From: Actinobacteria bacterium HGW-Actinobacteria-5
Lineage (GTDB): Bacteria; Actinomycetota; Actinomycetes; Propionibacteriales; Propionibacteriaceae
NCBI GenBank assembly: GCA_002843035.1
Contig: PHEV01000001.1
Span: 1 to 60,290, forward strand
DNA: 60,290 nucleotides
Direction: 5' to 3'
Both the position numbers and the translations under genes were made by a program. This document shows, piece after piece, positions 15,358-47,507 of this stretch (position 1 is the first letter of the stretch; every line of letters begins with the position of its first letter). The notes below the pieces were generated by a model. It had not been told where the DNA came from. It searched no databases and saw only the letters and a program-made list of their open reading frames with translations.

Positions 15358-15369
15358 GGCAGGCGACCT

Positions 15370-15439: not shown

Positions 15440-15440
15440 G

Positions 15441-16232: not shown

Positions 16233-16289
16233 GCTCGCGAGCGTACTGGGCCCGTCCCTTGACGGTCGAGGCGCGCCCGGCGCCACAGG

Positions 16290-16380: not shown

Positions 16381-16383
16381 GAC

Positions 16384-16674
16384 CCGGCCGTCACCGCCCT
16401 GGTCCGGGAGCTGCGCGCGGGCAGTCCCGAGTTCGCCCGGCTCTGGGACCTGCACGACGTCGAGCCGGCGCTCGTGCACACCAAGACGTTCCAGCATCCC
16501 GTGGTCGGCCCGGTGCGGGTCGACTGCGACACCCTGCTGCTCACCGATGCCGACCAGCGTCTGGTGCTGTACACCGCGCCGGTGGGTTCGCCGGACGCCG
16601 ACGCGCTCGCCATGCTCGGGACCCTCGGCCCGGGCGCGAGCCGTGCGGCTCAGCCGACGGCGTCCTTGCGGTAG
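16384..16674 (+). pseudogene. C-terminal remnant of an HTH/MmyB-type regulator
   Basis: The plus-strand frame reads VRELRAGSPEFARLWDLHDV, then TKTFQHPVVGPVRVDCDTL and QRLVLYTAPVGSPDADAL. This is the second half of the MmyB-like ligand-binding domain that follows an XRE helix-turn-helix in actinobacterial regulators. The helix-turn-helix and the first half of the domain are missing, and the frame is joined directly to the antisense SDR remnant. The last 25 nt overlap the 3' end of the convergent AraC gene. Confidence 0.7.
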
Positions 16675-17435
16675 CCGGCCGGGCTCAGCCCGAGCACGCG
16701 GGTGAACTCGTTGGTGAGGTGGGCCTGGTCGGTGTAGCCCAGCTCGGCGGCGAGGGACGCCAGGTCGGCGTCCGGGTCGGCCCGGATCCGTTCGGCCGCC
16801 TCCTGCAGCCGGCGCCGCCGGATCAGGGCCGCCGGGCCGAGGCCGACGTAGCGGGAAGCAAGCCTCTGCAGCGTCCGCTCGGAGGTGCCGAGCCGCTCGG
16901 CCAGCTCACCGACCCGGAGCAGGCCAGGGTCGGCCTCGGCGAGCTCCACCATCCGGTTGGCCTGGAGCGCGTCCGGGGTGGGATCGCCGACCCGGGCGAT
17001 CAGCCAGTCCGCAAGCACCTCGGATGCCGCCCGCCGCCCGCGCTCGCTCGGCGGGTCGCCGAACGACTCCCCGACCCGGGCGTGCAGTTCGGGCTCGGCC
17101 AGGGCCACGTACTCGTCGCGCAAGGACGCCGGGTCGTCGGTGAACGCCGGCACCGCCGCCGGGCGCAGCAGCGCGCCGACCACCCAACCGTTTCCGGACA
17201 GATCCCGATGGGACGTCCGCGTGGTCGGCCCGGACAGTCCGACCATGGTCGACTCCACCACCAGGTTGAGCGCCGGGAACGCGATCAGCTGCTGCCGCGA
17301 CACCGAGCCGTCGGAGAGATTCCAGCTGCTGATCCAGAACCAGCGCACCAGTGCCCGCGCCCCGGGTGGCGGCTCGAGCCGGTGCAGGTCGGGCAGGCGC
17401 TTCGGGTACAGCGTCCCCCGCGACGACGGCAGCAT
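16650..17435 (-). CDS. AraC-family transcriptional regulator
   Basis: DNA-binding protein of 261 aa. The C-terminal ~90 residues carry the two AraC helix-turn-helix motifs (ELAERLGTSERTLQRLASRYVG and SLAAELGYTDQAHLTNEFTR), ending in the usual GLSPAGYRK. The N-terminal ~150 residues resemble the all-beta sensor of the DUF6597 type (ALVRWFWISSW...). It is divergent from the VOC-family gene 62 bp away and probably controls it; the ligand is unknown. The start at 17435 is the first ATG giving the full sensor domain. Confidence 0.87.
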   Translation of the reverse strand: MLPSSRGTLYPKRLPDLHRLEPPPGARALVRWFWISSWNLSDGSVSRQQLIAFPALNLVVESTMVGLSGPTTRTSHRDLSGNGWVVGALLRPAAVPAFTDDPASLRDEYVALAEPELHARVGESFGDPPSERGRRAASEVLADWLIARVGDPTPDALQANRMVELAEADPGLLRVGELAERLGTSERTLQRLASRYVGLGPAALIRRRRLQEAAERIRADPDADLASLAAELGYTDQAHLTNEFTRVLGLSPAGYRKDAVG

Positions 17436-17497
17436 GCGGTGAGCCTATGTCGGGAATCTGCAAGCCCGGGCGGAGGGTGCCTGCCTAGGGTCGGGCC

Positions 17498-17989
17498 ATG
17501 AGTACCGCAGTCACCGGAAACCACACGGCCCACGGCCGTCCGAACGGCTTCTCCAGCATCACGCCGTTCCTGGCGGTCACGCCGGCCCGCGACGCCCTGG
17601 CCTTCTACTGCGAGGTCTTCGGCGCGACGCTGGTCGCCACCACCGAGTTCGGCGACGTGCTCGCCCATGCCGAACTCGACCTCGGCCACGGCCGGCTGCA
17701 GCTCGGCGAGCCGATGCCCGACTACCACCTGGTCGCGCAGCCGGACGGGGAGGACTCGAGCTTCTCCCTCGCCCTGTACTGCGCCGACGTGGACGCTGTG
17801 GTCGCGAAGGCGGTCGCCGCCGGTGCCACCGTCCGCGAGCCGGCGTCCGACTTCGTCTCCGGCGACCGGTACGCCAGCATCCGCGACCCGTTCGGCGTTC
17901 GCTGGTCGATCCTGACCCGGATCGAGGACCTCTCGGACGCCGAGAGCGCCGCCCGGGTCGCGGAGTGGGCCGCCCAGTTCGGCGGGTAG
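17498..17989 (+). CDS. VOC-family (glyoxalase/bleomycin resistance) protein
   Basis: A 163-aa protein with the paired beta-alpha-beta-beta-beta modules of the vicinal-oxygen-chelate fold: ITPFLAVTPARDALAFYCEVFGA at residues ~20-45 and FSLALYCADVDAVVAKAVAAGA at ~85-110. It ends with YASIRDPFGVRWSI, typical of PhnB/YdeM-like members. Its substrate cannot be read from the sequence. The AraC regulator next door suggests induction by a small molecule, for example a toxic aldehyde or antibiotic. ATG at 17498 lies just after GTCGGGCC, with a weak ribosome-binding site. Confidence 0.85.
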   Translation: MSTAVTGNHTAHGRPNGFSSITPFLAVTPARDALAFYCEVFGATLVATTEFGDVLAHAELDLGHGRLQLGEPMPDYHLVAQPDGEDSSFSLALYCADVDAVVAKAVAAGATVREPASDFVSGDRYASIRDPFGVRWSILTRIEDLSDAESAARVAEWAAQFGG

Positions 17990-17997
17990 GCCGCCCC

Positions 17998-18075
17998 TGG
18001 ACGAAAAGGGGACGGTTCCTTTCTCGTCCACCCGGTCCGGGTGGACCGAGTTCGGAACCGTCCCCGATCTGGTCC
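17998..18075. repeat. REP-like repeat locus C: two unlike copies
   Basis: Copy 1 (17998-18031) has arms GGACGAAAA/TTTCTCGTCC around GGGGACGGTTCC. Copy 2 (18041-18075) is in the opposite sense with the GTGGACCGAGTT arm seen at loci A and B. The junction forms a further dyad, GTCCACCCG-GTC-CGGGTGGAC (18027-18047). It lies between the VOC gene and trxB. Confidence 0.83.
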
Positions 18076-36055: not shown

Positions 36056-37129
36056 TCAGCGAACGACGCGGGCGTTGCCCTCCCAGATCGACCAGATCGC
36101 CGCTTCGTCGGCGGGGGTCGCGTAGTCGGTGAGGCAGGTGGCGGCGTAGGCACCGGAGGCCCAGCCGAAGTGGGTCGCGTCCTCGATCGACCAGCCGCGC
36201 AGCAGGCCGTAGAGGAGCCCGCCGACGAAGCCGTCCCCGCCGCCGATCCGGTCCAGGACGCCGATCTCGCGCGGCGCCACCGTGCACAGCTCGTCGCCGC
36301 TGCGCACGATCGCCCCCCACAGGTGGCGGTTCGTGCTGAGCACCTCACGCAGCGTGGTGGCGAACACCGAAGCGTTGCCGTACCGCTCGCGGACCCGCTC
36401 GATCATCGCGACGAAGCCGTCCAGCTGGTCGGTGACCGCCTCGCCGCCGGCCTGTGGCCCGGCCACCCCGAGGGCGAGCTGGAAGTCCTCCTCGTTGCCG
36501 ATCAGGATGTCGGCCAGGCCGGCGATCTCGCTGAACGCCGTCCGCAGTTCATCCTCTCGTCCCTTCCAGAAGGACGCCCGGTAGTTCAGGTCGAACGAGA
36601 TCGCGGTGCCGTGCGCCTTCGCTGCCCGGGCGAGCTCCACACAGAACCGGCTGGTCTGCGGCGAGAGCGCCCCGATCAGCCCGGACAGGTGCAGGATCTG
36701 GACGCCTTCGGTGCCGAAGAGTCGCTCGGTGTCGAAGTCGGCGATGTCCAGGGTCCGTCCGACCTCGCCGGCGCGGTCGTTCCACACCCGCGGGCCGCGG
36801 TGGCCGTAGCCGGAGTCGGCGATGTTGAACTGGTGCCGGTAGCCCCAGGCGCCGCCCTGCGGCACGTCCGGACCCTCGAAGACCATGCCGCGTGCCCGCA
36901 GGTTCGCCTTGATCAGGGCCGAGATCGGGCTCCCCGCGACGAAGTTCGTCAGCACCTTGACCGGCAGGCCGAGGTGGGACGCGACGCTGGCCACGTTCGA
37001 CTCCGCCGAGGTGGCCTGGAGCAGGAACCGGTCGCTGCTGTGCACGGTCTGGCCCGCTTCCGGGGTGATCCGTACCCCCATGCTGGTGGGCACGACCAGC
37101 GACCACTGCGCGTCCTTGCGAAACTCCAT
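36056..37129 (-). CDS. PfkB-family sugar-acid kinase (KdgK-like; gluconate proposed)
   Basis: A 357-aa ribokinase-fold kinase. The PfkB signature is intact near the C-terminal third: VLDRIGGGDGFVGGLLYGLL, with the catalytic Asp in GGGDGF. The N-terminal substrate region (GVRITPEAGQTV, ESNVASVASHLG, GYRHQFNIADSGYG) resembles 2-keto-3-deoxygluconate kinases but lacks their usual G-x-E-x-N-V and RPS-x-V-x-YDR spellings. ATG 37129 has AGGAGG 7 nt upstream. It is the last gene after uxaC-uxuB and may be partly transcribed from its own promoter near the motif at 37194. KDG is the textbook substrate, but no KDG-forming dehydratase is seen here; gluconate fits the gene set better. Confidence 0.82.
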   Translation of the reverse strand: MEFRKDAQWSLVVPTSMGVRITPEAGQTVHSSDRFLLQATSAESNVASVASHLGLPVKVLTNFVAGSPISALIKANLRARGMVFEGPDVPQGGAWGYRHQFNIADSGYGHRGPRVWNDRAGEVGRTLDIADFDTERLFGTEGVQILHLSGLIGALSPQTSRFCVELARAAKAHGTAISFDLNYRASFWKGREDELRTAFSEIAGLADILIGNEEDFQLALGVAGPQAGGEAVTDQLDGFVAMIERVRERYGNASVFATTLREVLSTNRHLWGAIVRSGDELCTVAPREIGVLDRIGGGDGFVGGLLYGLLRGWSIEDATHFGWASGAYAATCLTDYATPADEAAIWSIWEGNARVVR

Positions 37130-37193
37130 CACTTCTCCTCCTGCGGATGCCTGCGACCCGATCGTGGCAGCAGCGGACGCACGGCGGCGACTG

Positions 37194-37208
37194 CTTGCCG
37201 GGAGTTGC
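37194..37208 (-). promoter_or_regulatory. GCAAC-N5-GCAAC motif upstream of the PfkB kinase
   Basis: Minus-strand GCAAC-TCCCG-GCAAG, 65 bp upstream of the kinase start in the 171-bp gap after uxuB. One base differs from the form upstream of uxaC and larA. Confidence 0.45.
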
Positions 37209-37300
37209 CTACGCCGGCGCGGGACCGGTCGACCGCCGGACGGTCAGGTGCACCGGCACAACCGAGACCACCCCGGCGCCGGCGGACAACGCGGGCTCCC

Positions 37301-38689
37301 TCAGCGGGCGAGCGACAGCAGCTCCCCAGCGAGCCGATGGACGGCAGTGGCCAGCTCCGGCACGTCGGCGAGACCGAGGTGAGCGAGCACGGCGGCGACG
37401 CCGTCCGCCAGCGTCCCTGCGGCCAGCGGCGCCAGCGCCTGGGCGTTCACGTCCTTCACCGGAGCGCCGACACCGCGCAGGTGCAGCACCCAGGCCGCGA
37501 CCGCGCGGCACGCGCCCTCGGGTACCCGCCCGTCCGCGAGCTCTGCCCGCAGCGTGGGAACGATCCGCACCGGCAGCTTCAGCGAGCCGTCGGCGGCGAT
37601 CTGCGCCAGGGCATGGCGGATGTTCGGGTTGTGGTAGCGCTCGAGCAGCGCCTCGCGGTACGCGTCCAGCTCGTCGGCGGGCAGCGGCAGGTGCGCGCAC
37701 GCCTCGTCCCACCACTGCTCGACCCAGCCGCGACAGCGGGGATCGGCGATGGCGTCGGCGACCGTCTCGTGGCCGGCGATCGTGGCCGCGTACGCCAGCA
37801 GCGAGTGCGAGCCGTTCAGCAGGGCCAGCTTGCGACGCTCGAACGGGACCACATCGGGCACGATCCGGGCGCCGGCGTCGACCCAGTCCGGGCGTCCGGC
37901 GGGGAACTCGCCCTGGATCACCCACTCGGCGAACGGCTCGGTGGGCACGGGCGCGGCGTCGGTGATTCCGAGAGCGGTCCGCACGGCCGCGCGGTGCTCG
38001 GCCGTGGTGGCGGGGGTGATCCGGTCGACCATGGTGGTGGCGAAGCGGACGTTCGCTGCGATCCAGCCGACCAGGGTCTGGTCCACCTCGAGAGCCAGGT
38101 CGTGCACCACGCGAGCCAGGGCCTCCCCGTTGCCGGACAGGTTGTCGCAGGACACGATCGCGAGCGGACCGAGGCCGGCGGCGCGCCGGGCAAGGAGACC
38201 GCCGACGAGCCGTCCGGGGGCCGTGCGGACGACCGCGTCGGGCGCGGCGCGCAGCGCAGCGAGATCCGCTGCCACCTCCGCATCGGCCAGGTCGAGCCCG
38301 CCGTCGGCACCGCGGCGGTAGCCGGCCTCGGTGACCGTGAGCGTGACGATCGCGAGCGCGGGGGAGCGGAAGTAGCCCAGCAGTGCCGGGTGCTCCTCGG
38401 CGGAGTGGACGGCGGAAAGGCTCGAGATCACCTCGAACTCGTCGCCGACCGGCCCGCGGGTGATCAGGGTGTACAGGCCGTCCTGCGGACGCAGCTCGTC
38501 GGCGACAGCTGCCGAGCGTCCGGTGAAGGCGGCGATGCCCCAATCGGCGGCGTCCGGAGCGTGTTCGGTGTACCAGGCCTGGTGGGCGCGGAAGAAGTTG
38601 CCGACACCGAGGTGCACGATCCGCACCGGGGCGGCCGGCCGTCCGTGGCGGGCGCGGGACAGGGTCTGGGCGGCTGTGGTCGCGGTCAT
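37301..38689 (-). CDS. uxuB: Mannitol dehydrogenase-family protein, D-mannonate oxidoreductase (fructuronate reductase)
   Basis: NADH-dependent reductase of 462 aa turning D-fructuronate into D-mannonate. The N-terminal Rossmann region has IVHLGVGNFFRAHQAWYTE (~residue 26), and the family signature SCDNLSGNGEALARVV comes at ~190. The catalytic region FPLV-type is ALLNGSHSLLAYAATIAGHETV (~310), with the Lys-x-x-x-x-Asn-x-x-His pattern (KLALLNGSH). The ATG at 38689 overlaps the uxaC stop (ATGA), so a longer open frame upstream is rejected. UxuB after UxaC is the usual order of the glucuronate branch. Confidence 0.92.
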   Translation of the reverse strand: MTATTAAQTLSRARHGRPAAPVRIVHLGVGNFFRAHQAWYTEHAPDAADWGIAAFTGRSAAVADELRPQDGLYTLITRGPVGDEFEVISSLSAVHSAEEHPALLGYFRSPALAIVTLTVTEAGYRRGADGGLDLADAEVAADLAALRAAPDAVVRTAPGRLVGGLLARRAAGLGPLAIVSCDNLSGNGEALARVVHDLALEVDQTLVGWIAANVRFATTMVDRITPATTAEHRAAVRTALGITDAAPVPTEPFAEWVIQGEFPAGRPDWVDAGARIVPDVVPFERRKLALLNGSHSLLAYAATIAGHETVADAIADPRCRGWVEQWWDEACAHLPLPADELDAYREALLERYHNPNIRHALAQIAADGSLKLPVRIVPTLRAELADGRVPEGACRAVAAWVLHLRGVGAPVKDVNAQALAPLAAGTLADGVAAVLAHLGLADVPELATAVHRLAGELLSLAR

Positions 38690-40125
38690 AGCTTGAACGC
38701 CCTCCTGGGATTGCCGGTGACGAGCTCGTGGGCGGACTGCAGGGCCTCGTCCATGCTGAGCCGGTGCTCGGCGACGAGACGGGCGAGGAAGCCGGCGTCG
38801 ATCCGGCGGCTCAGGTCGTGCCGGGCCGGGATGGAGAGGTAGGCGCGGGTGTCGTCGATGAAGCCGGACGTGCGGGTGAAGCCCGCGGTCTCGGTGACGG
38901 ACGAGCGGAAGCGCGCCATCGCGTCCGGGGCGTCGATGAACCACCACGGCACCCCGACGAACACGCTCGGGTAGAAGCCGGCCAGCGGCGCGAGCTCGCG
39001 GGCGTAGACGGTCTCGTCGATGGTGAAGAACACCACGTGGAAGCCGGGGGAGGTGCCGAATGCTGCCAGCATCGGCTGGACGGCCCGGGTGAACTCCACC
39101 TGGAGCGGGATGTCCGCGCCGACGTCGGCGCCGTAGCCGGCGAACGTGGCCGGGTGGTGGTTGCGGTACACCGCGGGGTGCATGGTCAGCACCAGGCCGT
39201 CGTCGGCGGCCATCCGGGCCTGCTCGAACAGGAAGGCGCGGCGAAGGGTGTCCGCCTGCGCCGGCGTGATCGCGCCGTGGCGGCCCAGCGCGTAGAGGCG
39301 CTCGGCCTCGGCGTCATCCAGCGGTTCGACCCGTGCGTCCGCGTGCGAGTGGTCGGACGAGATGGCGCCGTGCGCCGTGAAGTACGCCCGCCGGCTCTCC
39401 ATCGCCGCCACCCACCCGGCGTAGCTGTCGACGTCGACGCCGCTGACCTCGCCGAGCCGGTCGATCCGGGTGTTCCAGTCGGCGCGGGCGGGCTCGAGGT
39501 AGGCGTCCGGCCGGAAGGTCGGCACGACCCGTCCGGTGAAGGTCTCGTCGGCGGCCAGGCGGGCGTGGTGGCGGAGGTCGTCGCAGGGGTCGTCGGTGGT
39601 GGCCAGGAGTTCGATGCCGAAGCGCTGGTACAGCGCCCGCGGCCGGAACGCCTCGGTGGCGAGGCGCTCGGCGATCGCGTCGTACAGCGCGTCCGCGGTC
39701 TCTGCGGACGGGGCGAGGTCGAGGCCGAAGATCTCGGCGAGTTCGGACTCCAGCCAGAACCGGACCGGGGTGCCGCGGTAGAGGTGCCAGTGCGCGCACA
39801 GCGTCCGGAACGCCTCCCGGGACTGCCCGGGGCCGAACGTGGTCTGGCCGACGCCGAGCCGGTCCAGCCCGATCCCGCTCGCGTGCAGCAACCGGGTCAC
39901 GTAGTGGTCGGGGGTGATCAGCAGGGACGTCGGGTCGGCGAACGGCTCGTCGTCGGCCAGCCACTGGGCCGGCACGTGCCCGTGCGGGGAGTAGATCGGC
40001 AACGCGCGGACGCTCTCGTAGAGCTCCCGGGCCAGGGACCTCAGCGCGGGGTCGGAGGGGAGCATCCGGTCAGGGTGCACCTCGAGGCGGGGTCCGGCGC
40101 TCAACTGGCTGGTCATGGCGTCCAT
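38686..40125 (-). CDS. uxaC: Glucuronate isomerase (uronate isomerase)
   Basis: Amidohydrolase-superfamily isomerase of 479 aa, D-glucuronate to D-fructuronate (and D-galacturonate to D-tagaturonate). It has the metal-binding YSPHGHVPAQWLADDEPFADP at ~residues 46-66 and LLATTDDPCDDLRHH (~170). AYFTAHGAISSDHSHADA, VLTMHPAVYRNHH and FVGVPWWFIDAPDAM follow. ATG 40125 has GGAAG 6 nt upstream; a second ATG three codons later is possible. It is the first gene of the minus-strand uxaC-uxuB-kinase operon and divergent from larA. Confidence 0.95.
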   Translation of the reverse strand: MDAMTSQLSAGPRLEVHPDRMLPSDPALRSLARELYESVRALPIYSPHGHVPAQWLADDEPFADPTSLLITPDHYVTRLLHASGIGLDRLGVGQTTFGPGQSREAFRTLCAHWHLYRGTPVRFWLESELAEIFGLDLAPSAETADALYDAIAERLATEAFRPRALYQRFGIELLATTDDPCDDLRHHARLAADETFTGRVVPTFRPDAYLEPARADWNTRIDRLGEVSGVDVDSYAGWVAAMESRRAYFTAHGAISSDHSHADARVEPLDDAEAERLYALGRHGAITPAQADTLRRAFLFEQARMAADDGLVLTMHPAVYRNHHPATFAGYGADVGADIPLQVEFTRAVQPMLAAFGTSPGFHVVFFTIDETVYARELAPLAGFYPSVFVGVPWWFIDAPDAMARFRSSVTETAGFTRTSGFIDDTRAYLSIPARHDLSRRIDAGFLARLVAEHRLSMDEALQSAHELVTGNPRRAFKL

Positions 40126-40155
40126 CGTGACTTCCGGCCCGGCTCTGGCACACGC

Positions 40156-40170
40156 GTTGCCGGGTGTTGC
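40156..40170. promoter_or_regulatory. GCAAC-N5-GCAAC motif upstream of uxaC
   Basis: Minus-strand GCAAC-ACCCG-GCAAC, 30 bp upstream of the uxaC start. It is inside one of two identical 20-bp direct repeats (40153-40172 and 40267-40286). Confidence 0.5.
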
Positions 40171-40176
40171 CGTCCC

Positions 40177-40265
40177 GGCCGAAAAGGGGACGGTTCCTTT
40201 CTCGGCCACCGCCGCTGCCGACGGACGAGGTGGACGGAAAGGAGAACCGTCCCCTTTTCGGCCAC
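40177..40265. repeat. REP-like repeat locus D: inverted pair between uxaC and larA
   Basis: Copy 1 (40177-40208): arms GGCCGAAAA/TTTCTCGGCC around GGGGACGGTTCC. Copy 2 (40230-40265) in reverse sense: GTGGACGGAAA, core GGAGAACCGTCCCC, TTTTCGGCCAC. The pair is enclosed by the 20-bp direct repeats at 40153 and 40267. Confidence 0.88.
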
Positions 40266-40269
40266 GCGC

Positions 40270-40284
40270 GTTGCCGGGTGTTGC
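40270..40284. promoter_or_regulatory. GCAAC-N5-GCAAC motif upstream of larA
   Basis: Same 15-mer as at 40156 (plus-strand GTTGCCGGGTGTTGC), 45 bp upstream of the larA homologue's ATG. A further GTTGCC follows at 40292. Confidence 0.5.
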
Positions 40285-40329
40285 CGCGGACGGTTGCCGC
40301 GTCCGGATGCAAGGAGCAGGGTGAGGGCC

Positions 40330-41610
40330 ATGAGCGAGCAGGTCGCAGAACTCGCCGCGGGCGCCGCGCTGGTCGGCGGGCCGGGCACAACCCTCAGCGA
40401 GGACGAGGTGCGCGGTTTCGTCCGCGCGCAACTGGATGCCGCCGACCTGGACGGGAAGAGCGTCTGCCTGGTGATCCCGGACGGCACCCGTTCCAGCCCC
40501 CTGCCGCTGCTGCTGGACGCCGTCTGTTCGGCCCTCACCGGACGGGTCACGAAACTCACCGCCGTGGTCGCCCTCGGCACCCACGTGGCGATGAGCGAGG
40601 CGGCGCTTGCCCACCACCTCGGCTACGAGGAGCGGGGACTGGCCGCGACCTACCCCGGCCTGAGCGTGCTGAACCACGAGTGGTGGAAGCCGGAGACGTT
40701 CGTCGAGCTGGGCGAGATCAGCGCCGGCCGGGTGGAGGAGCTCAGCGGCGGGTTGCTCGCCGTCGCGGCGAAGGTGTCCTTGAACCGGGTGGTGGTCGAG
40801 CACGACGTCGCCCTGGTCGTCGGGCCGGTCTTCCCGCACGAGGTGGTCGGCTTCTCCGGCGGGAACAAGTACTTCTTCCCCGGTATCGCCGGGCAGGAGA
40901 TCATCGATCTCACCCACTGGGTGGGTGCCCTGATCACCAGCGCCGAGATCATCGGGACGCTGGCGGTCACCCCGGTGCGGGCCCTGATCGACGAGGCCGC
41001 CGCGATGATCCCCGCGCAGAAGCTCGCCCTGTGCGTGGTGGCGAAGTCCGGCAGCTACGACCTGCACGCCGCGTCCTTCGGGGACAGCCGGGCGGCCTGG
41101 GCCGCGGCCGCGCAGGTGGCGGCGCAGACCCACGTCCGCTACCTGGACGCGCCGGTGCGGCGCGTGGTCTCCCTGATCCCCGAGAAGTACGAGGACATCT
41201 GGACGGCCGCGAAGGGCTTCTACAAGCTGGAGCCGGTCGTGGCGGATGGCGGCGAGGTGATCCTGTACGCGCCGCACGTGCGCGAGATCTCGGTCGTGCA
41301 CCAGGAGATCTACGAGATCGGCTACCACTGCCGCGACTACTTCGTCGGCCAGTGGGACCGCTTCGCCGGCGTCCACTGGGGTGTGCTGGCGCACAGCACG
41401 CACCTGCGGGGAGCCGGAACCTGGAACCCGGTGGACGGGGAACACTGCCGCGTGGACGTGACGCTGTGCACCGGCATCGACGAGGCGCGGGTCCGGAAGG
41501 CGAACCTCGGCTACCTCGACCCGGCCGGGTTCGACCTGGCCGCCTACGAGGACGACCCGGACACGATGGTCGTGCCCAACGCGGGGGAGACCCTCTTCCG
41601 ACTGCGCTGA
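40330..41610 (+). CDS. larA: LarA-family nickel-pincer racemase/epimerase (proposed mannonate/gluconate 2-epimerase)
   Basis: A 426-aa member of the lactate-racemase superfamily, whose members use a nickel-pincer nucleotide bound to a lysine and invert the C2 carbon of alpha-hydroxy acids. All four key residues are present with the spacing of Lactiplantibacillus LarA: His85 (ALGTHVAMSE), His170 and Lys180 (FPHEVVGFSGGNKYFFPG) and His196 (IIDLTHW). The nucleotide-binding VIPDGTRSSPLPLLL is at ~48. It lies divergent from uxaC, and larE, larB and larC are 3-6 kb downstream. The superfamily includes a D-gluconate 2-epimerase, which fits this uronate neighbourhood better than lactate. The 3' end overlaps the convergent lacI by 67 nt. 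Confidence 0.87.
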   Translation: MSEQVAELAAGAALVGGPGTTLSEDEVRGFVRAQLDAADLDGKSVCLVIPDGTRSSPLPLLLDAVCSALTGRVTKLTAVVALGTHVAMSEAALAHHLGYEERGLAATYPGLSVLNHEWWKPETFVELGEISAGRVEELSGGLLAVAAKVSLNRVVVEHDVALVVGPVFPHEVVGFSGGNKYFFPGIAGQEIIDLTHWVGALITSAEIIGTLAVTPVRALIDEAAAMIPAQKLALCVVAKSGSYDLHAASFGDSRAAWAAAAQVAAQTHVRYLDAPVRRVVSLIPEKYEDIWTAAKGFYKLEPVVADGGEVILYAPHVREISVVHQEIYEIGYHCRDYFVGQWDRFAGVHWGVLAHSTHLRGAGTWNPVDGEHCRVDVTLCTGIDEARVRKANLGYLDPAGFDLAAYEDDPDTMVVPNAGETLFRLR

Positions 41611-42599
41611 GCGGTCGAGCCGCGCACCTTCAGCTGCACCGGCATCACCAGCGCCTCCGTGCTGCGGTGCCGCGCTCCGTTGATCAGCGCCACCACGTTC
41701 TTCACCGCGGTGCTACCCAGCTGGCGCATCGGCGCCGCCACCGTGGTCAGTGTCGGCAGGGAGATCCGCGAGATCAGGATGTCGTCGAAGCCGACCACGC
41801 TCACCTGCTCCGGCACCGCCACGCCTTCACGCAGCAGCCCGTGCATCACCCCGAGCGCGATCAGGTCGTTGTACGCGATCACCGCGGACGGCAGCTTCTC
41901 CAGCAACGTCCGCGTCGCAGCCAGGCCACCCTCGAAGGTGGGCAGGAACGGCCCGATCCGGCTGACGGTCAGGCCGGTGTGTGCCCCGTGATCACGCAGG
42001 CTCCGGAAGCGGACGCCGTCCGCCCAGGACGCCTCCGGCCCGGCCACGTAGGTGGCGGCGTCGTGGCCGAGGTCACGCAGCAGTTCGACCACGGCGTGGG
42101 CGCCGCTCACGTTGTCGGCGACGACACTCGGCACGTCGATCAGGGCGCGGTTCAGCACCACCATCGGACGCTGTTTCGCGATCGTCCGCAGGGCGGAGTC
42201 GGACATCCGCGAGCTCCCGATCACGAACCCCTCGACCACAGGGACGAGCCGCTCGAGGGCGGCCCGCTCCCTGGTGCTGGACTCGCGCGAGTCCGCCAGC
42301 AGGATCTCGTAGCCGGCTTCGGTGGCGGCCAGCTGGGCACCCCGGATCAGCTGGGAGTAGAACGGGTTGGCGACGTCGGAGATCATCAGGGCGAGCAGTC
42401 GCGTCTGTGCCGTGACCGGTGCCTGCGTGACGGGGTGCGCGCGATAGCCGAGGTCGTGGGCGACCTGCCGGATCCGGGCAGCGGTGTCGGCGTTCACCCG
42501 TCCGGGCCGCGCGAACGCGCGGCTCACCGTGGATGGCGCCACGCCGGCGGCCTTCGCCACGTCGTAGATGGTGACCGGGACTCGCGGCTGCTCCGTCAC
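41544..42599 (-). CDS. LacI-family transcriptional regulator (uronate cluster)
   Basis: A 351-aa repressor. The N-terminal helix-turn-helix and hinge helix read VTIYDVAKAAGVAPSTVSRAF at residues ~8-28. The rest is the periplasmic-binding-like effector domain (LLALMISDVANPFYSQLIRG, VSVVGFDDILISRISLPTLT). GTG start at 42599; the frame is open upstream to 42803 but the family begins here. The last 22 codons lie antisense to the end of larA. It is divergent from gnd, with a GGTACGTACC palindrome and a GCAAC-N5-GCAAC motif in the 203-bp gap. It probably responds to a uronate or aldonate. Confidence 0.9.
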   Translation of the reverse strand: MTEQPRVPVTIYDVAKAAGVAPSTVSRAFARPGRVNADTAARIRQVAHDLGYRAHPVTQAPVTAQTRLLALMISDVANPFYSQLIRGAQLAATEAGYEILLADSRESSTRERAALERLVPVVEGFVIGSSRMSDSALRTIAKQRPMVVLNRALIDVPSVVADNVSGAHAVVELLRDLGHDAATYVAGPEASWADGVRFRSLRDHGAHTGLTVSRIGPFLPTFEGGLAATRTLLEKLPSAVIAYNDLIALGVMHGLLREGVAVPEQVSVVGFDDILISRISLPTLTTVAAPMRQLGSTAVKNVVALINGARHRSTEALVMPVQLKVRGSTAQRSRKRVSPALGTTIVSGSSS

Positions 42600-42714
42600 C
42601 CGACCAGAGTAGAGGAGCGGGCCGACGCCACGGTGGATCCGCGGGCTCCTGCCTCCGCGGGCATCGCGCGGCCGAGTGCGTCCTGCGTCCACGGCGGCAG
42701 CCCCGCGTCGCCAA

Positions 42715-42729
42715 GCAACCAGCGGCAAC
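42715..42729. promoter_or_regulatory. GCAAC-N5-GCAAC motif between lacI and gnd
   Basis: GCAAC-CAGCG-GCAAC, 73 bp upstream of the gnd start. This is the fourth instance of the motif, in the divergent control region of the cluster. Confidence 0.45.
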
Positions 42730-42762
42730 AGGTTGAGTCGGGCCCGGGGTGCTGGTTGATTG

Positions 42763-42772
42763 GGTACGTACC
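42763..42772. promoter_or_regulatory. Palindrome GGTACGTACC upstream of gnd
   Basis: A perfect 10-bp dyad with the central CG usual for LacI-family operators, 30 bp upstream of the gnd ATG. Candidate operator for the divergent LacI regulator. Confidence 0.4.
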
Positions 42773-42802
42773 GAGCAACAGGAACCCACAGGAGCGACTC
42801 CA

Positions 42803-44251
42803 ATGACCTCTGATCCCACCGCTACCGCCGACATCGGCGTGGTCGGCCTTGCCGTGATGGGCAGCAATCTCGCGCGCAACTTCGCCCGTCACGGGCACAC
42901 GGTGGCGCTGTACAACCGGACGGCATCCCGTACCCACGACCTGGTCGCCGAACACGGCGGGGAGGGGTCGTTCGTCCCGTCCGATGATCTGGCCGGGTTC
43001 GTGGCGAGCCTGAAGCGGCCGCGCCGGATGGTGCTGATGGTGAAGGCCGGGGACGCGACGGACGCCACGATCGATTCCCTGGTGCCCTTCCTTGAGCCGG
43101 GCGACATCGTCGTGGACGGCGGGAACTCACACTTCCCGGACACGATCCGGCGCGAGGCGGCACTCGCGGAGAAGGGGCTGCTGTTCGTCGGTGCCGGGAT
43201 CTCCGGCGGCGAGGAGGGCGCGCTGAACGGCCCGGCGATCATGCCCGGGGGACCCGCGGAGTCGTACGCGAGCCTCGGTCCGCTGCTGGAGTCGATCTCC
43301 GCGCACGTGGACGGCGTCCCGTGCTGCACCCACGTCGGCCCGGACGGCGCCGGCCACTTCGTGAAGATGGTGCACAACGGCATCGAGTACGCCGACATGC
43401 AGCTGATCGGCGAGGCCTACACCCTGCTGCGGCAGGGGTTGGGGGCCTCCCCTGCGGAGCTGGGCGACATCTTCGCCGAGTGGAACACCGGCGACCTGGA
43501 GTCGTTCCTGATCGAGATCACCGCCGAGGTGCTGCACCACACCGACGCGGAGACCGGGCGTCCGTTCATCGACGTGGTGGTCGACCAGGCCGGCCAGAAG
43601 GGCACGGGACGCTGGACCGTGCAGAGCGCGCTCGACCTCGGCGTCCCGGTGACGGGGATCGCGGAGGCGACGTTCGCCCGGGCCCTGTCCAGTTCGTTGC
43701 CGCAGCGCGAGGCCGCCCGGGCCACGCTGCCCGCGGACGCCGCGCCGATCACCGTGGACGACCGCGCCCGTTTCATCGAGGACGTGCGGCTCGCGCTGTA
43801 CGCGTCCAAGGTCGTCGCGTACAGCCAGGGCTTCGACCAGATCGCCGCCGCGAGCGCCGAATACGGCTGGAGCATCGACCGGGGCGCGATGGCCCGGATC
43901 TGGCGGGGCGGGTGCATCATCAGGGCCCGGTTCCTGAACCGGATCACGGAGGCCTACGAGCGCGAACCCGGGCTGGCGCTGCTGATCGCCGACCCGTACT
44001 TCGCGAAGGCTGTGGCTGACGGGCTGGCCGCCTGGCGGCGCGTGGTCGCACAGGCAGCGCTGAGCGGCGTGCCGGCGCCCGCGTTCGCTTCCAGCCTCGC
44101 CTACTACGACGGTCTGCGCGCCGAGCGGAGTTCGGCCGCCCTGATCCAGTGCCAGCGCGACCTCTTCGGCGCCCACACCTACGGACGCGTGGACAAGCCC
44201 GGCACCTTCCACACCCTCTGGTCCGGCGACCACAGTGAGGTCATGGCCTGA
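42803..44251 (+). CDS. gnd: 6-phosphogluconate dehydrogenase (decarboxylating)
   Basis: Oxidises 6-phosphogluconate to ribulose 5-phosphate and CO2 with NAD(P)+. The 482-aa product shows the Rossmann motif IGVVGLAVMGSNLARN (~residue 11). VDGGNSHFPDT, GISGGEEGA and the catalytic-lysine block HFVKMVHNGIEYADMQLIGE follow, with the family's long C-terminal helical domain (WRGGCIIRARFL). ATG 42803 has AGGAG 10 nt upstream. Its position in the uronate cluster is telling: it can finish a route that passes through gluconate. The tandem repeats of locus E begin 22 bp after its stop. Confidence 0.96.
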   Translation: MTSDPTATADIGVVGLAVMGSNLARNFARHGHTVALYNRTASRTHDLVAEHGGEGSFVPSDDLAGFVASLKRPRRMVLMVKAGDATDATIDSLVPFLEPGDIVVDGGNSHFPDTIRREAALAEKGLLFVGAGISGGEEGALNGPAIMPGGPAESYASLGPLLESISAHVDGVPCCTHVGPDGAGHFVKMVHNGIEYADMQLIGEAYTLLRQGLGASPAELGDIFAEWNTGDLESFLIEITAEVLHHTDAETGRPFIDVVVDQAGQKGTGRWTVQSALDLGVPVTGIAEATFARALSSSLPQREAARATLPADAAPITVDDRARFIEDVRLALYASKVVAYSQGFDQIAAASAEYGWSIDRGAMARIWRGGCIIRARFLNRITEAYEREPGLALLIADPYFAKAVADGLAAWRRVVAQAALSGVPAPAFASSLAYYDGLRAERSSAALIQCQRDLFGAHTYGRVDKPGTFHTLWSGDHSEVMA

Positions 44252-44273
44252 GCCACCTCCCTCCGGGTGCTCG

Positions 44274-44417
44274 GTGGCCGATAAGGGGACGGTTCTCTTT
44301 TCGTCCACCGGGTGCGTCGGGAGCGGAGTGGCCGATAAGGGGACGGTTCCTTTTCCGTCCACCCAGTGCGTCGGGAGCGGAGTGGCCGAAAAGGAGAACC
44401 GTCCCCTTTCCGTCCAC
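44274..44417. repeat. REP-like repeat locus E: three-copy array, period 54
   Basis: Copies at 44274-44308 and 44328-44362 (same sense) and 44382-44417 (reverse sense), separated by two near-identical 19-nt spacers (...GTGCGTCGGGAGCGGA). Outer arms are GTGGCCGATAA or GTGGCCGAAAA and TTTCGTCCAC or TTTCCGTCCAC. It lies between gnd and larE. Confidence 0.9.
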
Positions 44418-44486
44418 GGGTCGTTGTTCCAGGCTTGACCGGGAGATCCGGATCGGGTGTTGTGGTGCGAGCATGAGGAGGTGACC

Positions 44487-45329
44487 ATGACCACGGTGTT
44501 GAGCGACGACGTCGCCGAACTGGCCGGACGGGTCGAGGCGCGGTTCGGTTCACCGGCTCGGCTGGGCGTGGCGTTCTCCGGTGGCGTCGACTCCTCGGTA
44601 CTGCTCGCCCTCGCCACGCGCGCCCTCGGACCCGACCGGACGCTGGCCATCCTGGGCGTGTCGGCGAGCCTGGCCGCGTCCGAGCGCAGGGCCGCCCACG
44701 AGGTGGCCGCCGGCATCGGCGCCCCGCTGGTCGAGCTCGCCACGCACGAGCTGGAGCGTCCGGAGTACCGGGCGAACGGTCCCGACCGCTGCTACCACTG
44801 CAAGACCGAGTTGTTCAGCCGGATCGACGACGAGGTCGCCGCCCGCTACGGCCTCACCGCGGTCGCGTACGGCGAGAACGCGGACGACGCCGTACGGCCC
44901 GACCGGCCGGGGGCGAAGGCGGCCACGAACCACCGGGTGCTGCGCCCGCTCGCCGAAGCCGGCCTGGGCAAGGCGGACGTCCGCCGCGTGGCCCGTGCGC
45001 TCGGCCTGGCGTCCGCGGACAAGCCGGCCGCGCCGTGCCTGGCGTCCCGGATCCCGCACCACGAGCCGGTGACCGCCGCGAAACTGCGCCAGATCGAGGA
45101 CGCGGAGGAGGTGCTGCACGAACTCGGCTTCACCGAGGCCCGGGTGCGCCACCACGGCGAGATCGCCCGGATCGAACTGCCCGCGGACGACCTCGTCCGC
45201 GCGGTCACCGAGCCCGTCCGGACAGCGATCCGCAGCGGCGTGCGGGCGGCCGGCTTCCGGTTCGTCAGCGTGGACCTCGCCGGCGTCCAGTCCGGTGCGT
45301 TCACGTTGCCGCTGGTGACCCGTGGCTGA
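44487..45329 (+). CDS. larE: ATP-dependent sacrificial sulfur transferase LarE
   Basis: PP-loop enzyme of 280 aa that adenylates the pincer precursor and gives it the sulfur of its own cysteine. The PP-loop SGGVDSS is at residues 31-37, CYHC at 102-105, and the sacrificial cysteine is Cys184 in APCLASRIP, in the position of Cys176 of Lactiplantibacillus LarE. GVQSGAFTLPL closes the protein. ATG 44487 follows GGAGG; an in-frame TTG ten codons earlier is not needed. It overlaps larB by 8 nt. The gene makes the cofactor for the LarA homologue at 40330. Confidence 0.95.
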   Translation: MTTVLSDDVAELAGRVEARFGSPARLGVAFSGGVDSSVLLALATRALGPDRTLAILGVSASLAASERRAAHEVAAGIGAPLVELATHELERPEYRANGPDRCYHCKTELFSRIDDEVAARYGLTAVAYGENADDAVRPDRPGAKAATNHRVLRPLAEAGLGKADVRRVARALGLASADKPAAPCLASRIPHHEPVTAAKLRQIEDAEEVLHELGFTEARVRHHGEIARIELPADDLVRAVTEPVRTAIRSGVRAAGFRFVSVDLAGVQSGAFTLPLVTRG

Positions 45330-46005
45330 CCCCGCCTGGCAGCCGCCGGAGGAGTTGCGCGCGATCGCCGACCTCGACCTCGACCGGACGCAGCGCCGCG
45401 GCTACCCGGAGGCCGTCTACTGCGAGGGCAAGACCCCCGACCAGTTGCGCACGATCGCCGCCGCCCTGCGCGAGAAGGACGCCCGCACGATCTTCACCAG
45501 GGCGGACGCCGAGCGTGCGGCCGCGATCCTGCAGGTTCTTCCGGACGCCGGCCACGATCCGGATTCCCGCCTGCTCTGGTGGCCCGCCGTCCCGCCCGAA
45601 CCGTCCGGGGGACTGGTGGTGGTGGCCGCGGCCGGCACGTCCGACCTGCCGGTGGCCCGGGAGGCCCAACGGACGGCCGAGCTGCTCGGACGCCGCACCG
45701 AGCTCGTGGCGGACGTCGGGGTGGCGGGCCTGCACCGCATCCTGCGCCGGCTCGACCTGCTGCGCAGCGCGGCGGTGGTCGTTGTCGTGGCCGGCATGGA
45801 CGGTGCCCTGCCCAGCGTGGTCGCCGGTCTGGTCAGCGCTCCGGTCGTGGCGGTGCCGACGTCGGTGGGCTACGGCGCGTCCTTCGACGGCCTGGCGGCG
45901 CTGCTCACGATGCTCAACGCCTGTGCACCCGGGGTGGCCGTGGTGAACATCGACAACGGCTTCGGCGCCGGCCACCTGGCCGCCCAGATCGCCGCCCCCC
46001 GCTGA
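45322..46005 (+). CDS. larB: Nickel-pincer cofactor biosynthesis protein LarB
   Basis: PurE-like carboxylase/hydrolase of 227 aa acting on nicotinic acid adenine dinucleotide, the first step of the nickel-pincer pathway. Features are DLDRTQRRGYPEAVYCEGKT at ~residues 19-38, the AIR-carboxylase-like core VVVAAAGTSDLPVAREAQRTA (~97) and VVVVAGMDGALPSVVAGLV (~153), and the closing NIDNGFGAGHLAA. GTG start at 45322 lies inside larE (8-nt overlap), so larE and larB are coupled. Confidence 0.94.
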   Translation: MADPAWQPPEELRAIADLDLDRTQRRGYPEAVYCEGKTPDQLRTIAAALREKDARTIFTRADAERAAAILQVLPDAGHDPDSRLLWWPAVPPEPSGGLVVVAAAGTSDLPVAREAQRTAELLGRRTELVADVGVAGLHRILRRLDLLRSAAVVVVVAGMDGALPSVVAGLVSAPVVAVPTSVGYGASFDGLAALLTMLNACAPGVAVVNIDNGFGAGHLAAQIAAPR

Positions 46006-46042
46006 GCGCGACTCCACTCGCCGCCTTCATGCGCGAGCGCGG

Positions 46043-46273
46043 GTGGCCGATAAGGGGACGGTTCTCGTTTCCGTCCATCTGGCCCGAGTGGACGGAAAGG
46101 GGACGGTTCTCGTTTCCGTCCATCTGGCCCGAGTGGACGGAAAGGGGACGGTTCTCGTTTCCGTCCACCCCTACCAGTTGGGGTGGGTGCCGTCGTGGAC
46201 CGCAAGAGGAACCGTCCCCTTATCGGCCAGAGGAACCGTCCCCTTATCGGCCAACCGTCCCGTTACCGTCCAC
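46043..46273. repeat. REP-like repeat locus F: three-copy array (period 45) plus inverted copies
   Basis: Forward copies at 46043, 46088 and 46133, each about 35 nt, separated by the identical 10-nt spacer TCTGGCCCGA. Then comes a reverse-sense copy at 46195-46229, a copy lacking its left arm at 46229-46253, and a fragment at 46254-46273. It fills the gap between larB and the convergent larC. Confidence 0.9.
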
Positions 46274-46289
46274 TCGTCCCAGCGCAGGC

Positions 46290-47507
46290 TCAGGGCAGCG
46301 GCGAACCCACCATGTACCCGGCGGCGGCCGCCGCCCGTGCGGCCAGCCCGAGGGCAGCGCGCTGGGTGGTCCCGCGAACCCGGGCCAGCGTGGCCACGTC
46401 CGCGAACTCCGGGGTCGCGCTCGTGACCAAGTCGCCACGAAGGCCGAGCTTGACCCGCACCGGCACGCCGTCCACCTCGACGCGCACCTCGGTCCGTGCC
46501 AGGGCCGTCCGCGTCACCGCAATGCGCCGGACGCCAAGGGTCGGCACCAGCTCGAACACGAGCGACTCCAGGGCGTCCGCGTCCGGTGGGACGGAGAGCA
46601 CGCTGAGCGTGTGCGCGGGACGCCCCTTCTTCATCAGGATCGGCGTGAGCCAGGCGTCGGCCGCGCCCGCATCCATGAGAGACGCGAGGACGCCCGGCCA
46701 CAGGCGCGGGTCGAGGTCGTCGACGTTCGTCTCGAGCAGGACCATCGTGGAGGCGGCCTCGGCGTCCCCGCGCGCACCGAGAACCACCCGCACGATGTTG
46801 GGCCGGCCCTCGACGTCGCGGGTGCCGGCGCCCACGCCGACCGCATCCGGGACGAGCTCGGGCAAGTCCTCGCAGCGCTCCGCCAGCGCGCGAACCAGCG
46901 CCATGCCGGTCGGCGTGGCCAGCTCGCCCTCGCCCCCGGAACGAACCCGCCAGCCGAGTGCGAGCTCGGCCACCGCGGGCACGGGGACGGGGATCAGCCC
47001 GTGCGCGGCGTGCACCGCCCCTGAGCCGAGCGCGACGGGCCCGGCGCTGACGGACGCGACGCCGAGGTCCTCCAGGGCCGCGCAGACGCCGACCACGTCG
47101 GCGATCGAGTCCCAGGCCCCGACCTCGTGAAAGTGCACCTGGTCAGGGTCGATGCCGTGCGCGCGACCTTCGGCCGCAGCCAGGGCCGCGAAGGTGTCGT
47201 GGGCACGGATCCGGACGCGGTCGGGCAGTGGGGCGGACGCCAGCATCTCCCGGATGTCGCTCCAGTGCCGGTGGTCGGGGCTCTCCACCAGCGGGGTGAC
47301 CTCCACCTTGGTGGCACGCTGGCCCGCGCGCCGCACCTCGCGCGTGCTCAGTGCCACGGTGCCGGGCGCGACCGCATCCACGGCCGCGGCCACCCGAGCG
47401 AGATCCGCGCCGGCGTCCACGAGGGCGCCGAGCAGCATGTCCCCGGCCACGCCGGCCGAGGCGTCGATCCACGCGTGGCGTGGTGGTCCGGTGACTGCGT
47501 TGCTCAC
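46290..47507 (-). CDS. larC: Nickel-pincer cofactor nickel insertase LarC
   Basis: CTP-dependent cyclometallase of 405 aa that puts nickel into the pincer cofactor. The N-terminus has WIDASAGVAGDMLLGALVDAGA. The metal-binding HFHEVGAWDSIADVVG is at ~residue 130, and the C-terminal half has LLETNVDDLDPRLWPGVL and ILMKKGRPAHTLSVL. In Lactiplantibacillus the gene is split into larC1/larC2 with a programmed frameshift; here it is one continuous frame. GTG start at 47507; a longer open frame to 48404 is not homologous. Convergent with larE-larB across repeat locus F. Confidence 0.94.
   Translation of the reverse strand: MSNAVTGPPRHAWIDASAGVAGDMLLGALVDAGADLARVAAAVDAVAPGTVALSTREVRRAGQRATKVEVTPLVESPDHRHWSDIREMLASAPLPDRVRIRAHDTFAALAAAEGRAHGIDPDQVHFHEVGAWDSIADVVGVCAALEDLGVASVSAGPVALGSGAVHAAHGLIPVPVPAVAELALGWRVRSGGEGELATPTGMALVRALAERCEDLPELVPDAVGVGAGTRDVEGRPNIVRVVLGARGDAEAASTMVLLETNVDDLDPRLWPGVLASLMDAGAADAWLTPILMKKGRPAHTLSVLSVPPDADALESLVFELVPTLGVRRIAVTRTALARTEVRVEVDGVPVRVKLGLRGDLVTSATPEFADVATLARVRGTTQRAALGLAARAAAAAGYMVGSPLP

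What the first reader, a model, noticed from the sequence alone, without database searches (positions are those of the whole stretch)
36056..47507. Proposed nickel-dependent uronate route: mannonate epimerised to gluconate instead of dehydrated
Seen: uxaC, uxuB, a PfkB kinase, a LarA-superfamily enzyme, gnd, and larE, larB and larC are all within 11.5 kb; no UxuA and no KDPG aldolase are in the window. Known: UxaC and UxuB make D-mannonate; LarA homologues invert C2 of alpha-hydroxy acids with a nickel-pincer cofactor, and the superfamily includes a D-gluconate 2-epimerase; Gnd uses 6-phosphogluconate. Inferred: mannonate goes to gluconate (LarA homologue), is phosphorylated by the PfkB kinase and enters the pentose phosphate pathway through Gnd. 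This uses every gene present and needs none that is missing. It would yield NADPH and pentose instead of pyruvate and glyceraldehyde 3-phosphate.
Basis: partly seen in the sequence, partly recalled or inferred. Interest (0 to 1): 0.9.

Follow-up and report, generated by a model that had tools for sequence, protein, structure and literature searches.

The report
Nickel-epimerase bypass for glucuronate breakdown
A group of actinobacteria seems to break down glucuronic acid by flipping mannonate into gluconate with a nickel-cofactor enzyme and sending it into the pentose phosphate pathway, a shortcut proposed earlier for a heat-loving bacterium, here with an unusual kinase.

Summary
The genes are as described. 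The window lies in a Propionibacteriaceae-like MAG; the LarA-like gene is a GntE-type (mannonate/gluconate 2-epimerase) homologue. UxuA has no hit in the 98.9% complete genome. A KDPG aldolase exists on another contig, with a KDG kinase and an altronate/galactarate-type dehydratase. GntE tracks UxaC: 22 of 22 strong-GntE genomes among 60 relatives, 15 of 18 among 393 class members. Of 80 GntE loci, 49 have UxaC or UxuB, 14 a gluconokinase-like FGGY kinase, 13 Gnd, 1 KDPG aldolase, 0 UxuA. The window's PfkB kinase forms a clade apart from KDG kinases; seven of eight members lie beside gnd or uxuB, two of them as gnd-pfkB-gntE, and one congener has FGGY in that place. Best reading: mannonate, gluconate, 6-phosphogluconate, Gnd, with PfkB a probable gluconokinase. 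The route is not new: proposed for Thermotoga in 2012, epimerase shown in 2020, also from Corynebacterium. Against: that enzyme's high KM, and 8 of 22 GntE relatives also have a UxuA-family hit. No enzyme was assayed.

The parts
36056..37129 (-). PfkB-family kinase, proposed gluconokinase
   Evidence: PF00294 75 bits; best PDB 2afb KDG kinase 103 bits. Clade separate from KDG kinases, 100/100 support. Orthologues lie beside gnd or uxuB in 6 of 7 other cases.
37301..38689 (-). uxuB, fructuronate reductase (mannonate-forming, inferred)
   Evidence: PRK15037 277.6 bits, below its cut-off of 603; Mannitol_dh domains over cut-off. Only strong copy in the genome. Overlaps uxaC by 4 bp.
38686..40125 (-). 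uxaC, uronate isomerase
   Evidence: NF002794 526 bits (cut-off 387); PF02614.
40330..41610 (+). gntE-like LarA homologue, proposed D-mannonate/D-gluconate 2-epimerase using the nickel-pincer nucleotide
   Evidence: Lar_N; 4nar 201.8 bits alone, 278.7 bits with the family profile. H91, H176, K186, H202, K301, D57, R60 (numbering of P0001) invariant in 13 rows, 12 distinct proteins.
41544..42599 (-). LacI-family regulator of the cluster
   Evidence: PF00356, PF13377; related LacI in 38 of 80 GntE loci.
42724..42737 (.). candidate LacI operator GGCAACAGGTTGAG upstream of gnd (weak, 3 mismatches to GGCAANCGNTTGCC)
   Evidence: the same lacI-gnd gap has 1 mismatch in G027, 2 in G021 and G012, 3 in G026.
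42803..44251 (+). gnd, long NADP-type 6-phosphogluconate dehydrogenase
   Evidence: NF006765 729.5 bits (cut-off 413); the only long-type match in the genome.
44457..45329 (+). larE, nickel-pincer cofactor sulfur transferase
   Evidence: TIGR00268 274 bits (cut-off 150).
45322..46005 (+). larB, nickel-pincer cofactor synthesis
   Evidence: NF033503 282 bits (cut-off 175).
46290..47504 (-). larC, nickel insertion (LarC1 and LarC2 in one frame; start codon not settled)
   Evidence: TIGR00299 202 bits, NF052512 124 bits, both over cut-off; PF01969.

Best explanation
The cluster breaks down D-glucuronate without UxuA. UxaC makes fructuronate and UxuB reduces it to D-mannonate. The GntE-type enzyme, with a nickel-pincer cofactor made by LarB, LarC and LarE, inverts C2 to give D-gluconate. 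A kinase makes 6-phosphogluconate (here the PfkB protein; in 14 of 80 related loci an FGGY gluconokinase homologue). Gnd decarboxylates this to ribulose 5-phosphate and NADPH. Shown here: gene families, absence of UxuA, co-occurrence, conserved neighbourhoods, kinase swap, an operator shared by relatives. Inferred: substrates, order of the kinase and epimerase steps, flux.
For: UxuA absent. GntE tracks UxaC: 22 of 22 strong-GntE genomes among 60 relatives against 6 of 38 without; 15 of 18 against 44 of 375 in the class (p 2.7e-11 and 4.8e-11, not corrected for phylogeny). In 80 GntE loci (the best 80 of at least 591) UxuA is in 0, Eda in 1, UxaC or UxuB in 49, FGGY kinase in 14 (all within those 49), Gnd in 13, beta-glucuronidase in 19, any lar gene in 36. 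FGGY best matches gluconokinase in 3 of 3 scanned, below cut-off. PfkB, eight proteins: next to gnd in G010, Tessaracoccus L133 and Actinomycetaceae L141 (the last two gnd-pfkB-gntE); next to uxuB in the window, G026, G027 and G005; alone in G035. G012 has FGGY at that place. G010 keeps pfkB and gnd without uxaC or gntE. 0 of 6 PfkB proteins among the relatives lie next to Eda against 16 of 20 KDG-kinase paralogues. Enzymes of this group from C. glutamicum and T. maritima convert D-mannonate to D-gluconate in vitro (PMC7583248 passages).
Against: The C. glutamicum enzyme has a KM of 120 mM for D-mannonate and its authors doubted the substrate. A KDG kinase, KDPG aldolase and galactarate/altronate-type dehydratase exist on C104, so part of the canonical lower route is available. 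Eight of 22 GntE relatives also have a UxuA-family hit, so GntE is not always a replacement. 32 of 59 UxaC genomes in the class have neither GntE nor UxuA. The window itself has no beta-glucuronidase, glucuronide transporter or FGGY orthologue, so glucuronate as feed rests on relatives. In this genus gnd lies in the recF-gyrB region without gntE too (G010, G017, G024). G021 has neither a pfkB nor an FGGY orthologue.
Confidence: 0.75

Rival explanations
1. Phosphorylation comes first: the kinase makes 6-phospho-D-mannonate and the nickel enzyme epimerises this to 6-phosphogluconate, as in the enzymology of Lactobacillus suebicus.
For: L. suebicus extracts do this and its epimerase gene is unknown (PMC6978723, passages and abstract). 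KM values of the two GntE enzymes for free mannonate are high, 120 and 17 mM; a third, LarAH15, has 9.4 mM (PMC11770544 passage).
Against: G010 keeps pfkB next to gnd without uxaC or gntE, which suits a gluconate kinase. The three FGGY kinases scanned are closest to gluconokinase. Free mannonate is epimerised in vitro by these enzymes.
Confidence: 0.12
2. The reductase makes altronate or mannonate that is dehydrated elsewhere: uronates end in KDG and the C104 kinase and aldolase, and the LarA homologue does something unrelated.
For: C104 carries a galactarate/altronate-family dehydratase, KDG kinase and KDPG aldolase. The window's reductase is the only strong one in the genome. One of 80 loci, L085, has Eda and such a dehydratase within 10 kb of gntE.
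Against: No UxuA. Beta-glucuronidase recurs in the GntE loci (19 of 80), pointing to glucuronate, not galacturonate. C104 has no operator site at 2 mismatches or fewer in 14 kb. GntE tracks UxaC in two samples.
Confidence: 0.1
3. The PfkB protein is a KDG kinase and gluconate is phosphorylated by another kinase in the genome.
For: Best named relatives are a KDPG aldolase/sugar kinase fusion and KDG kinases. Other FGGY kinases exist in the genome, best 152 bits to the cluster FGGY.
Against: A distinct KDG kinase sits with Eda on C104. The PfkB clade is separate (100/100), lies beside gnd or uxuB in 7 of 8 cases, and beside Eda in 0 of 6.
Confidence: 0.25
4. The nickel enzyme acts on another 2-hydroxy acid such as glucarate or lactate.
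For: Desguin et al. suggested a uronic or aldaric acid for the C. glutamicum enzyme. No curated NCBIfam cut-off is met (best NPN_18_hexonate 153.5 of 500).
Against: Much closer to 4nar than to lactate racemase (201.8 against 32.7 bits). Hexonate-group marks present. Neighbours are uronate and gluconate genes. The genome has a separate, more LarA-like protein on C284 (337.8 bits, cut-off 460 not met).
Confidence: 0.1

Closest known systems
Thermotoga maritima hexuronate network with GntE (Rodionova 2012, not held; GntE2 shown active by Desguin 2020, PMC7583248 passages)
   Same: Mannonate to gluconate by a LarA homologue, then gluconokinase and 6-phosphogluconate dehydrogenase.
   Different: T. 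maritima rings for a UxuA-family gene (control rows); the window genome has none. A PfkB-type kinase and a LacI operator were not mentioned in the passages read.
Corynebacterium glutamicum GntE1 (LarAH19, PMC7583248 passages)
   Same: Actinobacterial hexonate epimerase whose group has a uronic-acid gene context; C. glutamicum rings for UxaC but not UxuA.
   Different: The authors left the true substrate open; their Table S1 was not seen.
Lactobacillus suebicus galacturonate to phosphoketolase route (PMC6978723 abstract and passages)
   Same: Upper isomerase route joined to 6-phosphogluconate, bypassing UxuA.
   Different: Kinase acts before the 2-epimerase, and the epimerase gene is unknown.
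Canonical isomerase (Ashwell) pathway, UxaC-UxuB-UxuA-KdgK-Eda
   Same: First two enzymes.
   Different: UxuA absent. Congeners with it (G011, G020, G023) carry a different UxaC type; in G011 UxuA, KDG kinase and Eda are adjacent.

Membership tests
GntE / hexonate 2-epimerase group (groups 18-20) of the LarA superfamily | Lar_N domain and the NPN-binding and catalytic residues of LarA | tested here: met
   PF09861 72 bits. H91, H176, K186, H202, K301, D57, R60 invariant in 13 rows, 12 distinct proteins, and lined up with the lactate racemase chain 2yjg. Which LarA residues they equal is recalled.
GntE / hexonate 2-epimerase group (groups 18-20) of the LarA superfamily | E-V/S in the loop and W in helix 11 (PMC7583248 passage) | tested here: met
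   P-H-E-V-V-G and H-W in all rows; that these are the loop and helix meant is my reading. The third mark (A/V in helix 14) was not placed.
GntE / hexonate 2-epimerase group (groups 18-20) of the LarA superfamily | Curated model cut-off | tested here: not met
   NPN_18_hexonate 153.5 bits against 500. By its name this model covers group 18; no hit to a group 19 or 20 model appeared.
GntE / hexonate 2-epimerase group (groups 18-20) of the LarA superfamily | Epimerises D-mannonate and D-gluconate | not testable with these tools
   Needs an assay.
Canonical UxuA glucuronate pathway | UxuA mannonate dehydratase | tested here: not met
   0 matches in G000.
Canonical UxuA glucuronate pathway | KDG kinase and KDPG aldolase | tested here: met
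   Both on C104, away from the window. The aldolase is over a cut-off; the kinase is not.
KDG kinase (KdgK) | Curated KDG kinase cut-off | tested here: not met
   98.5 of 440, 36.8 of 400, 30.7 of 400 bits; the C104 kinase also misses its cut-offs, so this alone decides little.
KDG kinase (KdgK) | Linked to KDPG aldolase | tested here: not met
   0 of 6 beside Eda, against 16 of 20 paralogues.
Gluconokinase | Phosphorylates gluconate at C6 | not testable with these tools
   Inferred from gnd-pfkB-gntE order and the FGGY swap.

The most novel reading that the evidence does not exclude
The PfkB protein founds a gluconokinase family of the ribokinase fold that replaced the FGGY enzyme in a nickel-dependent glucuronate route, and this route is the main lower route in the Actinomycetota that carry UxaC and GntE but no UxuA. 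In that case the doubtful physiological substrate of Corynebacterium GntE1 would be mannonate (or its 6-phosphate) from UxuB.
Probability: 0.5. Interest if true: 0.62.

Novelty: new variant of a known kind. Interest (0 to 1): 0.5.

Why it matters
It gives a physiological setting to a biochemical puzzle (an actinobacterial nickel epimerase with poor affinity for its assayed substrate). It makes a glucuronate route to pentose phosphate and NADPH, independent of UxuA, testable in culturable genera, and names a candidate for a new gluconokinase family. It also ties synthesis of a rare nickel cofactor to uronate catabolism by gene order (any lar gene in 36 of 80 loci) and, in a few loci, by a shared operator (larE 5 of 29).

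Tried and rejected
Considered: gnd lying there only because actinobacteria often carry a gnd near the origin (recalled). In four other Propionibacteriales the gnd within 4 kb of the contig start is of a short type (G037, G039, G043, G052); the window's is the long type, and G000 has a short one on C128. But in this genus the long gnd lies between recF and gyrB without gntE in G010 and G017, and after recF and clpP in G024, whose contig ends there. So the window adjacency alone was discounted.

Considered: strict mutual exclusion of GntE and UxuA. It holds in the class sample (0 of 18; p 0.019 among UxaC genomes) but fails in 8 of 22 GntE genomes among relatives (G012 and seven of family f4), so it is not claimed.

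Considered: palindromes in the window as operators. The strongest shared repeats there are a dispersed GGGGACGGTTC element, not an operator. The motif GGCAANCGNTTGCC was found from three sites (one in G010, two in L074) and then counted in all 80 loci, including L074, so its count is partly circular. In the window it is only a 3-mismatch match. In eight Kribbella-family (f2) UxaC regions there is no site at 1 mismatch or fewer (0 of 8); of eight named Kribbella gntE loci 3 have one.

Led nowhere: paper searches for GntE/UxaC terms with Actinobacteria, C. glutamicum with mannonate and glucuronate, and PfkB with gluconokinase or gluconate kinase showed no paper on the topic in their listings; only titles, counts and abstract starts were seen. 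Passages of PMC12611868 and PMC6353982 added nothing decisive.

Rows dropped before counts: the 22 GntE genomes are those over 480 bits and drop 4 weaker-only genomes of the 26 listed; the 18 in the class are those over 580 bits and drop 15 of 33. UxuA in the class counts 20 over cut-off of 22 matched. Two rows were left out of the kinase tree (an opposite-strand reading of L150, and L155, a duplicate of G011). In the operator count genes at contig edges were dropped (gntE 79 of 80, larC 26 of 27, beta-glucuronidase 18 of 19). The 20 KDG-kinase paralogues are those between 100 and 170 bits, paired by eye (within about 3 kb); the four not near Eda are in G009, G010 (two) and G019. The LacI query was out of frame; LacI counts come from the corrected query. 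L064 and L065 are the same contigs as in congeners G021 and G002, so the two samples are not fully independent.
Full report
OBSERVATION. The genes are there: pfkB 36056-37129 (-), uxuB 37301-38689 (-), uxaC 38686-40125 (-), a LarA homologue 40330-41610 (+), a LacI regulator 41544-42599 (-), gnd 42803-44251 (+), larE 44457-45329 (+), larB 45322-46005 (+), larC 46290-47504 (-). dnaA, dnaN, recF and two clpP lie on the left, gyrB and gyrA on the right; these flanks were named by eye from their ORFs, not by a family scan. The window is contig C177 of a genome of 3.84 Mb, 98.87% complete, 3.6% contaminated. The nearest named records are Propionibacteriaceae MAGs (86 and 81% identity of GntE); one has the contig length of congener G021. 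The order uxuB-uxaC-gntE-lacI-gnd-larE-larB recurs in G012, G021, G026 and G027 of the same genus, so the contig is not foreign.

MISSING GENES. UxuA (PF03786) has no match in the genome, while the same search finds it in 5 of 14 control genomes. KDPG aldolase is present at C104 (227.6 bits), with a KDG kinase, a LacI regulator and a galactarate/altronate-family dehydratase. The reductase is the only strong one in the genome; the next hit is 43.9 bits. The window also has no match to the relatives' beta-glucuronidase, glucuronide transporter or FGGY kinase.

THE LARA HOMOLOGUE. It is closer to 4nar, filed as a putative uronate isomerase (201.8 bits; 278.7 with a 13-row profile), than to lactate racemase 2yjg (32.7 and 52.8 bits). 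I take 4nar to be the Thermotoga maritima protein from recall. The residues that match the catalytic and cofactor-binding residues of LarA are invariant in 13 rows, 12 distinct proteins, as are the E-V loop and the tryptophan that PMC7583248 (passages) gives as marks of groups 18-20. The nearest curated model, NPN_18_hexonate, is matched below its cut-off (153.5 of 500). Desguin et al. showed D-mannonate to D-gluconate activity for LarAH19 of Corynebacterium glutamicum and LarAH20 of T. maritima. Their KM for the first was 120 mM, and they suggested that its real substrate might differ, although its group has a uronic-acid gene context (their Table S1, not seen).

CO-OCCURRENCE. Among 60 relatives, 22 have a strong GntE match, and all 22 have UxaC, against 6 of the other 38. 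Of those 6, four have UxuA (G011, G020, G023, G050) and two are 81-82% complete (G005, G031). Their UxaC regions hold a UxuB-like reading frame and a LacI gene, and no UxuA, Eda or KDG kinase match (8 of 8). Among 393 genomes of the class, 18 have strong GntE; 15 of these have UxaC against 44 of 375 without, and none has UxuA. Against the reading: 32 of 59 UxaC genomes in the class have neither GntE nor UxuA, and 8 of 22 GntE genomes among relatives also carry a UxuA-family hit. The p-values do not correct for shared ancestry. In the control rows C. glutamicum rings for UxaC and not for UxuA, the same state as the window genome.

NEIGHBOURHOODS. A scan with the profile found at least 591 loci; the best 80, L064-L143, mostly Actinomycetota by record title, were examined, many on short contigs. 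At 150 bits or more: UxaC or UxuB in 49, LacI 38, LarE 29, LarC 27, LarB 23, beta-glucuronidase 19, FGGY kinase 14 (all in the 49), Gnd 13, glucuronide-type transporter 8, PfkB orthologue 2, Eda 1, UxuA 0. One GH2 representative was scanned and is over the cut-off for beta-glucuronidase (878.8 of 544). The FGGY kinases match gluconokinase best in 3 of 3 scanned, below its cut-off. Beta-glucuronidase points to glucuronate as the feed, hence fructuronate and mannonate. By contrast, in the UxuA cluster of G011 UxuA, KDG kinase and Eda are adjacent.

THE KINASE. The window's PfkB protein has orthologues over 540 bits in five relatives (G005, G010, G026, G027, G035) and over 450 bits in two named loci, eight proteins in all. 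Next to gnd: G010 (head to head), Tessaracoccus oleiagri L133 and an Actinomycetaceae MAG L141 (both gnd-pfkB-gntE on one strand). Next to uxuB: the window, G026 and G027 in the cluster, and G005 at a contig end. G035 is the exception. G010 keeps pfkB and gnd in the recF-gyrB interval but lacks uxaC and gntE, which fits a kinase for gluconate. G012 has an FGGY kinase where G026 and G027 have pfkB; G021 has neither. In a tree of 16 rows the eight PfkB proteins form a clade (100/100) apart from KDG kinases. None of the six in the 60 genomes lies near Eda, against 16 of 20 KDG-kinase paralogues. No listing in two paper searches showed a PfkB gluconokinase.

GND. The long NADP-type gnd is in 10 of 30 genomes of the genus: 6 of 6 with GntE and 4 of 24 without (p 3.5e-4). 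It lies between recF and gyrB in G010 and G017 as well, and after recF in G024, so in this genus its place may be older than the cluster. Outside the genus it lies near gntE in 12 further loci (L066, L074, L081, L086, L093, L099, L130, L132, L133, L139, L141, L142).

REGULATION. A palindrome, GGCAANCGNTTGCC, was noticed between pfkB and gnd in G010 and twice in L074. In the 80 loci there are 68 sites with at most one mismatch against 2 to 10 in ten shuffles, and 51 of the 68 lie just upstream of cluster genes: gntE 19 of 79, uxaC 18 of 43, lacI 19 of 38, beta-glucuronidase 7 of 18, larE 5 of 29, uxuB 4 of 44, transporter 1 of 8, gnd 1 of 13, and none for FGGY (14), larC (26) or pfkB (2). Divergent genes share sites, so these counts overlap, and the motif came from one of these loci. 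In the window only a 3-mismatch copy lies before gnd. The C104 aldolase locus has none at 2 mismatches or fewer in 14 kb. Kribbella-family UxaC regions have none (0 of 8); two f4 regions have one perfect copy each.

VERDICT ON NOVELTY. The route mannonate to gluconate to 6-phosphogluconate was proposed for T. maritima by Rodionova et al. 2012, as reported in PMC6978723 and PMC7583248 (passages read; the 2012 paper is not held). A variant with the kinase first was shown in extracts of L. suebicus (PMC6978723 abstract and passages). What this work adds is the distribution in Actinomycetota, the context that makes mannonate from UxuB the likely feed of the Corynebacterium-type enzyme, a candidate PfkB gluconokinase, and an operator. 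Most likely, then, this is a new variant of a known kind.

Noticed in passing
14613-18065, 40186-40254, 44285-44406, 46054-46243: A dispersed element with core GGGGACGGTTC occurs 16 times in the window (0.11 expected), in both directions; in the cluster it lies between uxaC and gntE, gnd and larE, larB and larC. It looks like a small repeat family.
   Followed up: partly
G000:C284:15093-16616 (L050:7094-8617, minus): A second LarA homologue, closer to lactate/malate racemases (337.8 bits to Ni_dep_LarA, below its cut-off of 460), so larB, larC and larE may serve two enzymes.
   Followed up: partly
L064:3977-5968, L171, L172, L173, L133, L141: A GH3-family glycosidase gene (two of the six scanned) recurs near the kinase, uxuB or gnd of this cluster in six loci; the window has no match to it.
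   Followed up: partly
G011, G020, G023 (L052, L053, L178): Within one genus two UxaC types exist: a typical one (488 and 551 bits where unbroken) in genomes with UxuA and a divergent one (about 230-240 bits) beside GntE.
   Followed up: partly
6371-7909: An FGGY kinase on the minus strand is glycerol kinase GlpK (774.7 bits), not a gluconokinase.
   Followed up: yes
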